The notes under the pieces are model-generated. The model was given only the letters and a program-made list of their open reading frames with translations, was not told the origin of the DNA and did not search any database. Positions 3,061-12,199 of a stretch of DNA of 50,481 nucleotides are shown piece by piece. This DNA comes from Paenibacillus sp. oral taxon 786 str. D14 (GTDB taxonomy: Bacteria > Bacillota > Bacilli > Paenibacillales > Paenibacillaceae), in the NCBI RefSeq assembly GCF_000159955.1, contig NZ_GG695992.1, forward strand, positions 1 to 50,481. The letters run 5' to 3'. The position numbers and the translations under genes were made by a program. How positions within the stretch are numbered: position 1 is the first letter of the stretch; each line of letters begins with the position of its first letter.

Positions 3061-4134
3061 ATGAAACTAAAAGTTGGTATTATCGGATGCGGTGGGATTG
3101 CAAACGGCAAGCATATGCCGGCTCTTTCCGAGGTGAAAGAAGTAGAAATGGTAGCCTTCTGCGATATTGTCGTGGAACGTGCGGAGGAAGCGAAGAAGAA
3201 ATTTGGTACTGCGGATGCGCAGGTTTTTGATAATTATGAAACGATGTTAGCGAATACCGATTTGGATGTCGTTCATGTATGTACGCCAAACTCTTCGCAT
3301 GCGGTCATTTCGATTGCAGCGATGGAAGCGGGCTGTCATGTGATGTGCGAGAAACCGATGGCGAAGACGGCTGAAGAAGCGAGAAGCATGGTCGAAGCGT
3401 CCAAGCGGACCGGCAAGAAATTAACGATCGGTTATCAGAACCGGTTCCGGACGGATTCGAGATATTTGCACCAAGTTTGTGAAGAGGGCGGTTTGGGTGA
3501 AATTTATTTTGCTAAAGCTCATGCGATTCGTCGCCGTGCGGTACCAACTTGGGGCGTATTCCTGGATGAGGAAGCGCAAGGCGGAGGTCCATTGATCGAC
3601 ATCGGTACCCACGCGCTTGACCTGACGCTCTGGATGATGAACAACTACAAGCCGAAGTACGTGGTGGGGAAAACGTATCATAAATTGTCCCAAACGAAAA
3701 ATGCAGCGAATGCATGGGGACCTTGGGATCCGGAAAAATTCACTGTAGAAGACTCCGCATTTGGTTTTGTCGTGATGGAAAACGGGGCCACCATCTTCCT
3801 GGAATCCAGCTGGGCGTTAAACAGCCTGGACGTAAAGGAAGCAAAAACGACGCTGTGCGGAACCAAAGCAGGCGCCGATATGAACAATGGCCTGACCATC
3901 AACGGGGAAGACCACAGCCTGCTGTATGAGAAGAAGATCGAGCTGCAAACCGGCGGCGTTGCTTTCTACGACGGTGCAGGCGAAAGACCGGAGGTGCTTG
4001 AAGCCCAATCCTGGATTCAGGCGATCCTAAATGATACCGAGCCTGTCGTGAAACCGGAAGAAGCCTTGGTGGTTACGGAAATTCTAGAGGCGATTTACAA
4101 ATCCTCGAAGACCGGCGAGCCGGTATACCTATAA
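3061..4134 (+). CDS. Gfo/Idh/MocA-family NAD(P)-dependent oxidoreductase (357 aa)
   Basis: An oxidoreductase that oxidises or reduces a sugar hydroxyl/keto group. The N-terminal Rossmann fold carries GIIGCGGIA (6-14). The conserved EKP lysine motif is at 97-99, and GGGPLIDIGTHALD (174-187) supplies the Asp180/His184 pair typical of family active sites. The length is normal. Start at ATG 3061 is fixed by AGGAGGG just upstream; a longer in-frame start at 2950 lies in the preceding terminator. It is first in a four-gene run (3061-6908) with short gaps: dehydrogenase, ThuA-like, TIM barrel, dehydrogenase. Such company suggests oxidation to a keto-sugar followed by isomerisation or elimination. 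The substrate is not deducible. Confidence 0.88.
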   Translation: MKLKVGIIGCGGIANGKHMPALSEVKEVEMVAFCDIVVERAEEAKKKFGTADAQVFDNYETMLANTDLDVVHVCTPNSSHAVISIAAMEAGCHVMCEKPMAKTAEEARSMVEASKRTGKKLTIGYQNRFRTDSRYLHQVCEEGGLGEIYFAKAHAIRRRAVPTWGVFLDEEAQGGGPLIDIGTHALDLTLWMMNNYKPKYVVGKTYHKLSQTKNAANAWGPWDPEKFTVEDSAFGFVVMENGATIFLESSWALNSLDVKEAKTTLCGTKAGADMNNGLTINGEDHSLLYEKKIELQTGGVAFYDGAGERPEVLEAQSWIQAILNDTEPVVKPEEALVVTEILEAIYKSSKTGEPVYL

Positions 4135-4152
4135 GATCAAGGAGCGATATCC

Positions 4153-4863
4153 ATGATTCAAGTCACCGTATGGAACGAATATCGGCATGAGAAGACCAAT
4201 AAAGTCGTTCAAGAAGTATATCCGGAAGGGATTCACGGGCAAATTGCAAAGTTTCTCCGTGAGGACCAATTCAAAGTGAAGACGGCAACGTTGGACGAAC
4301 CAGAGCATGGCTTGACGGAAGAAGTATTAGAGGATACGGATGTCCTGATCTGGTGGGGGCATATGGCCCATGATGAAGTCCAGGATGAAATCGTGGAACG
4401 CGTGCATAAGCGGGTGCTGGAAGGTATGGGGCTGGTTGTGCTGCATTCGGCACATTTCTCCAAAATTTTCAAGAGACTCATGGGAACCTCTTGCGACCTG
4501 AAATGGCGGGAAGACGGGAAGCATAGCCGCATTTGGAACGTGAACCCGAGCCACCCGATTGCCGAAGGTATCGGCGATTTTATCGAGTTGGAGAAGGAAG
4601 AGATGTACGGGGAGCATTTTGATATTCCGGCACCGGACGAGCTGATCTTTGTCAGCTGGTTCCCTGGAGGCGAAGTGTTCCGCAGCGGTTGTACGTTCCG
4701 GCGGGGGAACGGGAAGATCTTCTATTTCCAACCTGGCCATGAAACGTATCCGAGCTATTATAACGAGAAAGTGCAGAAGGTCATTAAGAACGGGATCCGC
4801 TGGTGCGCTCCAACCCAAAATCTGTATCCCGTTTACGGCCACTATGAAGCACGTGAAAAATAA
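4153..4863 (+). CDS. ThuA-like domain protein (236 aa)
   Basis: A cytoplasmic protein of the ThuA family, a class I glutamine-amidotransferase-like flavodoxin fold named after the rhizobial trehalose-utilisation gene thuA. Visible family features are VTVWNEYRHE at the N-terminus, DVLIWWGHMAHDEV (63-76), GLVVLHSAHFSKIF (92-105) and the C-terminal GKIFYFQPGHETYPSYYN block. In rhizobia ThuA works with the Gfo/Idh/MocA dehydrogenase ThuB in making 3-keto-trehalose. Here it sits 18 nt after one Gfo/Idh gene and two genes before another, so a role in keto-sugar formation or handling is a reasonable inference. The biochemical role of the fold itself is unsettled. Confidence 0.85.
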   Translation: MIQVTVWNEYRHEKTNKVVQEVYPEGIHGQIAKFLREDQFKVKTATLDEPEHGLTEEVLEDTDVLIWWGHMAHDEVQDEIVERVHKRVLEGMGLVVLHSAHFSKIFKRLMGTSCDLKWREDGKHSRIWNVNPSHPIAEGIGDFIELEKEEMYGEHFDIPAPDELIFVSWFPGGEVFRSGCTFRRGNGKIFYFQPGHETYPSYYNEKVQKVIKNGIRWCAPTQNLYPVYGHYEAREK

Positions 4864-11023: not shown

Positions 11024-11068
11024 TGGATGAGGGGGAAGTCCCACGAGTAAAGGTAGAGGAGGAGAAGC

Positions 11069-12199
11069 ATGACAACGACCTTAAAAACGATCAGCCAGGA
11101 GATCTGGCCGCGGTTGGAGTCCAAGGTGTCGCTGATGCGGGATTCCTTGGGATCTAAGGCTCCGCATGTTGCAGGACAAAACGGAATTTATGACGATACG
11201 AAGCTGGACTGGTGGACCTCCGGATTCTGGCCGGGGATCCTATGGCTGATGTACGACATGACGGGTGAAGAAGGATGGCGGGAGGCAGCCTGGTCTTGGG
11301 ATGAACGGTTGTTTGCGTTGTTCCAGCAGGAGAATGCTTTTGATCATGATGTAGGTTTTCATTTTTTGCCGACGGCGGTCTTTAAGTATAAGCTGACCGG
11401 CGACAAAGACGCCTTGCGGCGAGGCTTGTTTGCGGCAAACTTCCTGGCCGGCCGCTTCAACCCGAAGGGCAGCTACCTCCGGGCTTGGAACGGCAGCAAG
11501 CAAACCGGCTGGTCGATCATCGATACGATGATGAATATCTCGCTGCTCTTCTGGGCTTCCGAGGAAAGCGGCGACCCACGGTTTGCGCATATCGCCAAGG
11601 CTCATGCGGATATGGTTGTGAAGCAATTCGTGCGGGCGGACGGGTCCACCCATCACATCGTGGTGTTTGACCCCGAAACGGGCGAACGCGTGGGGGCGTT
11701 AGGCGGACAAGGCGCGGGTCCCGACTCGGCCTGGAGCCGGGGGAACGCCTGGGCGCTTTACGGCCTGACGAATACGTACCGTCATACCAACGACGCAGTG
11801 TACTTAAGTGCAGCCCAGCGGGTGGCAAATTTCTTTATCGCTAGCTTGCCTGAGGACAGCGTCCCGCCGTGGGATTTCCGGGCCATACTGGAAGCTGGGG
11901 ACGACGAGATTCCCCGTGACACCTCGGCCGGAGCGATCGCTGCCTCCGGGTTGCTAGAACTTGCCGACCAACTGGATGAACCGATTGGCCGACCGTACCG
12001 CTCTGCCGCCGAGCGAATCTTAAGCTCACTCGCTACGAATTATGCCACTTGGGACGATCCGAAGCATGAGGCCATCCTGCTTCAAGGTACGGGCCACAAG
12101 CCAGCTAATCAGAACGTGAACGTTTCGCTGATCTACGGGGATTATTACTTCGTTGAGGCGTTGGCGAAGCTCCAAGGATGGAAGCGGCGTATTTTCTAA
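11069..12199 (+). CDS. GH88 unsaturated glucuronyl hydrolase (376 aa)
   Basis: A cytoplasmic (alpha/alpha)6-barrel enzyme that removes delta-4,5-unsaturated uronic acid from the non-reducing end of oligosaccharides made by polysaccharide lyases. The two catalytic aspartates match those of Bacillus GL1 UGL (Asp88, Asp149): Asp94 in FDHDVGFHF and Asp152 in WSIIDTMMN. Other family marks are WWTSGFWPG (48-56) and the C-terminal NVSLIYGDYYFVEAL. No signal peptide. AGAGGAGGAG precedes the ATG. As last gene of the importer operon it implies that the imported sugars carry an unsaturated uronate. The exact substrate (glycosaminoglycan, gellan, xanthan or plant glycan type) is open. Confidence 0.93.
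   Translation: MTTTLKTISQEIWPRLESKVSLMRDSLGSKAPHVAGQNGIYDDTKLDWWTSGFWPGILWLMYDMTGEEGWREAAWSWDERLFALFQQENAFDHDVGFHFLPTAVFKYKLTGDKDALRRGLFAANFLAGRFNPKGSYLRAWNGSKQTGWSIIDTMMNISLLFWASEESGDPRFAHIAKAHADMVVKQFVRADGSTHHIVVFDPETGERVGALGGQGAGPDSAWSRGNAWALYGLTNTYRHTNDAVYLSAAQRVANFFIASLPEDSVPPWDFRAILEAGDDEIPRDTSAGAIAASGLLELADQLDEPIGRPYRSAAERILSSLATNYATWDDPKHEAILLQGTGHKPANQNVNVSLIYGDYYFVEALAKLQGWKRRIF

What the first reader, a model, noticed from the sequence alone, without database searches (positions are those of the whole stretch)
3061..12199. Candidate oxidation-based glycoside processing pathway in a Firmicute
Two Gfo/Idh/MocA dehydrogenases with intact EKP and D-x3-H motifs, a ThuA-like protein and a metal-site TIM-barrel lie in one operon, with a second TIM-barrel at 1098, directly before an oligosaccharide importer and GH88. 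In rhizobia ThuA/ThuB act in 3-keto-trehalose formation, and in gut bacteria Gfo/Idh plus TIM-barrel enzymes cleave glycosides through keto intermediates. The combination here with a GH88 uronyl hydrolase suggests an oxidise-eliminate-reduce route for sugars released from a uronate-containing glycan. I know of no described pathway with exactly this set.
Basis: partly seen in the sequence, partly recalled or inferred. Interest (0 to 1): 0.7.

Follow-up and report, generated by a model that had tools for sequence, protein, structure and literature searches.

The report
Oxidative glucoside-splitting operon with ThuA
A Paenibacillus operon appears to split sugar-containing compounds by oxidising the sugar and then eliminating its partner, instead of using water directly, and it regularly carries a protein of unsolved role (ThuA) that may do the splitting for one class of linkage.

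Summary
The genes are real and placed as described. Gfo1 aligns end to end with DgpA, a glycoside 3-dehydrogenase (E 1e-134). The barrel at 1098 resembles 3-keto-beta-glucopyranoside-1,2-lyases in fold and keeps the four active-site residues of the O-glycoside beta-eliminase AtOGE. The barrel at 4889 is nearest to an uncharacterised protein and to the 2-hydroxy-3-keto-glucal hydratase AtHYD. Oxidise-eliminate-hydrate-reduce is thus the best reading; the chemistry is published. The set with ThuA is a portable operon in Bacillota: in 60 Gfo1 neighbourhoods ThuA is near in 19 of 22 that have TIM2 and 1 of 38 that lack it. The GH88/uronate link fails: in four sister genomes 4.5-5.8 kb of other DNA separates operon and importer, and the window's spacer keeps pieces of it, so the adjacency arose by deletion. 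Open and testable: ThuA's job. AtOGE does not cleave 3'-keto-maltose (PMC10628242), and Thu systems serve alpha-glucosides, so ThuA may be the alpha counterpart of the lyase. New variant of a known kind.

The parts
1098..1850 (+). TIM1: xylose-isomerase-like barrel, candidate 3-keto-beta-glucoside 1,2-lyase (beta-eliminase)
1957..2898 (+). AraC-family regulator (cupin sensor plus HTH), likely regulator of the operon
   Evidence: Pfam; same-strand AraC directly before Gfo1 in L031-L041
3061..4134 (+). Gfo1: DgpA-type glycoside 3-dehydrogenase
   Evidence: 9m3d DgpA1 461 bits, 7xr9 DgpA 452 bits, aligned over residues 2-356 and 2-352 of 357
4153..4863 (+). ThuA-family protein; role inferred, not shown
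   Evidence: Pfam ThuA 2.2e-39; 1t0b 372 bits; near in 19 of 22 Gfo1+TIM2 loci
4889..5857 (+). TIM2: candidate 2-hydroxy-3-keto-glucal hydratase
5871..6908 (+). Gfo2: candidate 3-keto-glucose reductase, or a second glycoside 3-dehydrogenase
   Evidence: 3e18 470 bits (function not stated), 9m37 DgpA2 203 bits
6924..6951 (+). 12-pair hairpin after Gfo2, possible terminator
   Evidence: -20.8 kcal/mol, z -3.76; not listed by the consensus terminator scan
7021..7242 (.). Deletion scar: remnant of a lipoprotein gene that in L032 and L034 lies among the genes separating the operon from the importer
   Evidence: 87-89% identity to L032 and L034
7491..12199 (+). NOT part of the operon: SBP, two permeases, GH88
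   Evidence: 4.5-5.8 kb away from Gfo2 in L032, L033, L034, L036; in four extended stretches conserved as a block with AraC2 and SBP2

Best explanation
A self-contained operon for splitting O-glucosides by oxidation rather than direct hydrolysis. Gfo1 oxidises C3 of the glucosyl unit to the 3-keto-glycoside. TIM1, a metal-dependent barrel, takes the now acidic C2 proton and expels the aglycone, giving 2-hydroxy-3-keto-glucal. TIM2 adds water to give 3-keto-glucose. Gfo2 (or Gfo1 running backwards) reduces that to glucose, reusing the NADH of step one. AraC probably senses a substrate or product. ThuA is a regular fifth part; most likely it deals with 3-keto substrates that TIM1 cannot handle, alpha-linked ones above all. 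Shown here: gene content, homology, conserved active-site residues, folds of models, conservation of the operon. Inferred: every reaction, the substrate, and ThuA's role.
For: Gfo1-DgpA full-length match. TIM1: AtOGE match, four active-site residues, nearest folds are keto-glucoside lyases. TIM2: AtHYD among the two nearest folds, clear of the next rows. Linkage: ThuA 19 of 22 against 1 of 38, TIM1 9 of 22 against 2 of 38, Gfo2 13 of 22 against 1 of 38. In a tree of 31 TIM1-like proteins the window's copy falls in a 100/99-supported clade of 14 whose deeper branches (Listeria, Terrilactibacillus, Vagococcus) carry TIM1 inside the operon. The same four steps were reconstituted for levoglucosan (PMC7676230, passages).
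Against: No activity data for these proteins. TIM1's fold does not single out lyases: 3obe (27.9) is tied with them, isomerase Art22 follows at 27.3 and IolE at about 25, above AtOGE at 24.1. TIM2's best match has no stated function. No protein of the operon reaches an NCBIfam equivalog cut-off, the Bacteroides glycoside and disaccharide 3-dehydrogenase models included. A TIM1 (28% identity or more, within 5.5 kb) is lacking near 18 of 31 distinct Gfo1-TIM2 modules, and Gfo2 near 10.
Confidence: 0.65

Rival explanations
1. One reading: the operon handles sugars released by the adjacent importer and GH88 from a uronate-containing glycan.
For: Adjacency in the window and in L031; the importer unit lies further downstream in L032, L033/L091, L034/L092, L035/L095, L036/L093; a different GH88 (44%) lies in L040. 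GH88 match in 2 of 22 module loci against 0 of 38 others.
Against: 4.5-5.8 kb of other genes lie between in four sister genomes and the spacer is a deletion scar; GH88 lacking in the stretches of 20 of 22 module loci (about 20 kb each); a DgpA did not act on a glucuronide (passage).
Confidence: 0.05
2. A keto-sugar epimerase pathway: the barrels epimerise 3-keto-glucosides, as YcjR does, and the second dehydrogenase reduces the product to another glycoside, with no bond cleavage.
For: Same fold; YcjR (6wn6) is in the Foldseek lists of both models.
Against: It ranks 35th and 46th there, below the lyases and below AtHYD; TIM1's four AtOGE residues are invariant in 36 homologues.
Confidence: 0.1
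3. A thu-like disaccharide pathway only for alpha-glucosides, in which ThuA cleaves and TIM1 is incidental.
For: ThuA is nearer constant than TIM1 (28 against 13 of 31 modules); LgdB2, a hydratase, could partly replace the eliminase LgdB1 (PMC7676230, passage).
Against: Wherever TIM1 lies near a module ThuA is there too (13 of 13), and in L036, L040, L041, L103, L106, L107, L119 TIM1 is inside the gene row.
Confidence: 0.12
4. Levoglucosan or C-glycoside breakdown.
For: Same chemistry and enzyme classes (PMC7676230, PMC8563793, passages).
Against: Levoglucosan dehydrogenase model 107 and 83 bits against a cut-off of 650. The CGDB subunit (PF19906) was found in 0 of 15 relatives while the same search found it in 4 of 78 family genomes; one of those four, G043, does carry the operon (L027), about 380 kb away.
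Confidence: 0.05

Closest known systems
A. tumefaciens GlycDH-AtOGE-AtHYD-Gfo operon (PMC10628242, passages seen)
   Same: TIM1 resembles AtOGE, TIM2 resembles AtHYD, a Gfo reductase closes the cycle; same four steps proposed.
   Different: First step there is a GlycDH flavoenzyme, here a DgpA-type NAD enzyme; no occurrence of ThuA in that main text.
Bacillus smithii levoglucosan cluster lgdA-B1-B2-C (PMC7676230, passages seen)
   Same: Two Gfo enzymes and two barrels; oxidation, elimination, hydration, reduction reconstituted with four enzymes.
   Different: Gfo1 fails the levoglucosan dehydrogenase cut-off; no occurrence of ThuA in that main text.
dgp C-glycoside cluster (PMC8563793, passages seen)
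   Same: Gfo1 is a DgpA homologue.
   Different: The CGDB subunit (DgpB) is not among the window proteins scanned nor in 15 relatives.
Bacteroides/Alistipes 3-keto-glycoside pathway (seen only as PDB titles and NCBIfam names; paper recalled, not held)
   Same: TIM1's nearest folds are its 3-keto-beta-glucopyranoside-1,2-lyases.
   Different: Gfo1 and Gfo2 score far below the BT_2158 and BT_2159 family cut-offs.
Thu systems: thuEFGKAB of Agrobacterium (PMC6683767) and a thuAB pair of Paenibacillus JDR-2 (PMC4765114), passages seen
   Same: ThuA-family protein with an oxidoreductase; 3-keto disaccharides proposed.
   Different: Those sit with a disaccharide ABC importer; here ThuA sits with two keto-sugar barrels and, in the window, no importer in the same unit.

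Membership tests
DgpA-type glycoside 3-dehydrogenase (Gfo1) | Full-length homology to DgpA with the Gfo/Idh motifs | tested here: met
   452-461 bits over nearly all residues; EKP and DIGTH
DgpA-type glycoside 3-dehydrogenase (Gfo1) | C3 oxidation of glucosides with NAD | not testable with these tools
   needs purified enzyme
O-glycoside beta-eliminase / 3-keto-glucoside 1,2-lyase (TIM1) | Metal-site and catalytic residues of AtOGE (E39, H134, E161, H189) | tested here: met
   all four aligned and invariant in 36 rows
O-glycoside beta-eliminase / 3-keto-glucoside 1,2-lyase (TIM1) | Nearest fold is a known lyase | tested here: inconclusive
2-hydroxy-3-keto-glucal hydratase (TIM2) | Nearest fold and sequence AtHYD | tested here: inconclusive
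Levoglucosan dehydrogenase | NCBIfam NF052479 cut-off 650 bits | tested here: not met
   106.6 and 82.7 bits
Inositol pathway IolG/IolE | NCBIfam TIGR04380 (355 bits) and TIGR04379 (290 bits) | tested here: not met
   113.9 and 140.8; TIM1 49.8
dgp C-glycoside cluster | CGDB subunit (PF19906) with the dehydrogenase | tested here: not met
   not among window proteins scanned; 0 of 15 relatives (no positive control), 4 of 78 in the wider family
ThuA family | Pfam PF06283 above cut-off | tested here: met
   136.3 bits against 33.4
Rhizobial thu system | ThuA with ThuB and its own ABC importer in one operon | tested here: not met
   importer is a separate unit; ThuB orthology itself not tested
Uronate-glycan pathway with GH88 (reader) | GH88/importer conserved as part of the unit | tested here: not met
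   GH88 in 2 of 22 Gfo1-selected module stretches; adjacency by deletion

The most novel reading that the evidence does not exclude
ThuA, known from rhizobial trehalose use without an assigned reaction (recalled), is the cleaving enzyme for alpha-linked 3-keto-glucosides, the counterpart of the beta-preferring TIM1 lyase. Both would feed one shared hydratase (TIM2) and reductase, making this operon a pathway for alpha- and beta-glucosides alike, without glycoside hydrolases, across Bacillota.
Probability: 0.25. Interest if true: 0.65.

Novelty: new variant of a known kind. Interest (0 to 1): 0.45.

Why it matters
It places oxidise-eliminate-hydrate-reduce chemistry in a compact operon shared by several families of Bacillota, with an NAD-linked first step. 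Above all, the conserved partnership of ThuA with a hydratase-like barrel turns the open question of what ThuA does into a bench test with defined partners and substrates.

Tried and rejected
GH88/uronate link: rejected on synteny. Inositol and levoglucosan: model scores far below cut-offs. C-glycosides: CGDB in 0 of 15 relatives; that search had no positive control, so I ran it on 78 family genomes, where 4 ring, among them G043, which carries the operon elsewhere. Terminator after Gfo2: not listed by the consensus scan, supported by folding; left as possible. ThuA and TIM1 as simple alternatives: weakened, since 13 of 31 distinct modules have both. Where the operon lacks ThuA (L039, L043, L044) the genome has another copy of 61-65%; in those 14-kb stretches no other operon protein was matched, but my frame picker missed ThuA itself there, so this is a weak view. 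Alpha/beta idea: GH13-like genes lie in 6 of 31 module stretches, none with TIM1 nearby, but five are one genus (g14), so this is little evidence. Literature: ThuA with sugar terms; 3-keto-glycoside and DgpA terms; I found no paper describing this gene set in those listings. The 2013 thuEFGKAB paper is not held and I did not see the 2024 Bacteroides paper. The library lacks most subscription papers.

Full report
OBSERVATION. Pfam confirms the domains, except that the SBP at 7491 gave no Pfam match. Both Gfo proteins keep EKP and D-x3-H. Core genes are 13-25 bases apart. A strong hairpin follows Gfo2 at 6924-6951, though the consensus scan did not list it.

CONSERVATION. The window's own assembly is not held. 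Same-genus genomes include Paenibacillus timonensis, P. mellifer and P. sanguinis, judged by equal contig lengths. Gfo1 homologues at E<=1e-60 occur in 235 of 245 family genomes. I fetched 60 neighbourhoods of up to 20 kb: the top 20 rows of the capped list and 40 chosen further down. In the eleven same-genus loci with Gfo1 at 90% or more (L031-L041) the row is AraC-Gfo1-[TIM1]-[ThuA]-TIM2-Gfo2; ThuA is missing only in L039; TIM1 is inside the row in L036, L040 and L041, 2-4 kb upstream in L031-L035, and not near in L037-L039. Among the 60, TIM2 lies within 5.5 kb of Gfo1 in 22; of these ThuA is near in 19, TIM1 in 9, Gfo2 in 13, and a GH88 match is in the stretch in 2; among the other 38 the counts are 1, 2, 1 and 0. 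These genomes are related, so the counts are not independent. In the 80 best named ThuA loci (of 588 in a capped scan) TIM2 at 45% or more lies within 5 kb in 52, Gfo1 in 14, Gfo2 in 11, TIM1 in 3; three of the 80 (L100-L102) are genomes also seen in the 60. Bacillaceae typically show ThuA-Gfo-Gfo-TIM2. In Enterococcus, Vagococcus, Lactococcus, Listeria and Terrilactibacillus the row is Gfo1-ThuA-TIM2-Gfo2, in L103, L106, L107 and L119 with TIM1; of eight such loci read by eye, six have no importer or glycosidase that I recognise beside them, L103 has glycosidase-like genes and L109 an ABC importer (flanks not family-searched). ThuA occurs in 13 of 13 relatives searched; a TIM1 of 64% or more in 7 of 13, the others having only homologues of 29-36%. 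In a tree of 31 TIM1-like proteins the window's copy belongs to a seven-row set (95/99) lying upstream of, or on another contig than, the operon; that set sits inside a 14-row clade (100/99) whose other members are in the operon, so it was probably moved out.

GH88 IS A NEIGHBOUR, NOT A PART. From Gfo2 to SBP1 the distance is 4.5, 5.7, 5.8 and 5.3 kb in L032, L033, L034 and L036, and 0.6 kb in L031 as in the window. In L032 and L034 the genes between look like an epoxide-hydrolase-like protein, a cupin-like protein, a lipoprotein and others (my reading of translations, no family search). The window spacer is a mosaic: its bases 113-334 match the end of that lipoprotein gene and 397-582 the stretch before SBP1, which are 1.7 kb apart in L032 and 3.0 kb in L034. 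The closeness is therefore a deletion product. SBP1-permeases-GH88-AraC2-SBP2 is conserved as a block in L091, L092, L093 and L095.

MECHANISM. Most likely Gfo1 oxidises, TIM1 eliminates, TIM2 hydrates, Gfo2 reduces. This is inferred. The same steps were reconstituted with four enzymes for levoglucosan (PMC7676230, passages) and shown or proposed for A. tumefaciens (PMC10628242, passages). Substrate: probably O-glucosides. C-glycosides are less likely, as the CGDB subunit was found in 0 of 15 relatives though in 4 of 78 family genomes, one of which (G043) also carries the operon, about 380 kb away. How modules without TIM1 cleave is open: a TIM1 homologue elsewhere, TIM2 doing both steps as LgdB2 partly can, or ThuA.

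THUA. AtOGE cleaves 3'-keto-cellobiose but not 3'-keto-maltose in 20 h; it does cleave an activated alpha-nitrophenyl substrate slowly, 1.2 against 39 U/mg for beta (PMC10628242, passage). The Agrobacterium Thu system serves trehalose, palatinose, maltitol and sucrose isomers (PMC6683767, passage and reference title), and in Paenibacillus JDR-2 a ThuAB pair is placed by its authors in maltose use with a proposed 3-keto-maltose (PMC4765114, passages). These are alpha-glucosides. ThuA as the alpha-side cleaving enzyme fits its presence both beside TIM1 and without it. Against: no sequence link to any lyase, no assay, three of 22 modules lack it locally. I give this 25%.

NOVELTY. The four-step chemistry is known. 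This NAD-first, ThuA-containing Bacillota version I did not find in the search listings. ThuA has no occurrence in the main texts of PMC10628242, PMC12724307, PMC8563793, PMC9007349, PMC7676230, PMC11239390 and PMC10066097. The library lacks most subscription papers, so this is a limited statement.

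Noticed in passing
window 596-938: Second deletion scar: pieces that lie about 1.3 kb apart in L031 and L034 are joined here, leaving what reads like the start of a TetR-type regulator run into the end of another gene. L032 shares this junction, whereas the spacer deletion at 6909-7490 is shared with L031 instead, so the window is a mosaic relative to its two nearest genomes.
   Followed up: partly
window 7491-9146 and 14821-16491: Two paralogous solute-binding proteins (51% identical) with one permease pair between them.
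   Followed up: no
window 30681-31370 and 31493-32182: Tandem pair of rhamnosyl-transferase-like genes, 61% identical.
   Followed up: no
L106:9802-10116 and L169:11839-12150: Frames made of short repeated peptides (such as repeats of WRNSN) between TIM2 and Gfo2 or just after TIM2, pointing to short DNA repeats.
   Followed up: no
L119:9712-10760: Gfo2 of Listeria grandensis reads as two frames, 245 and 104 residues; broken or a sequencing error, not examined.
   Followed up: no
L045, L047, L049 and similar loci: A second, widespread Gfo1 type (70-74% identical) with a divergent AraC-like gene and none of the other operon genes nearby; its role is unknown.
   Followed up: no
L103: TIM1 of Enterococcus sp. 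JM4C branches among Paenibacillus copies (99/96 set), suggesting transfer of the operon between families.
   Followed up: partly
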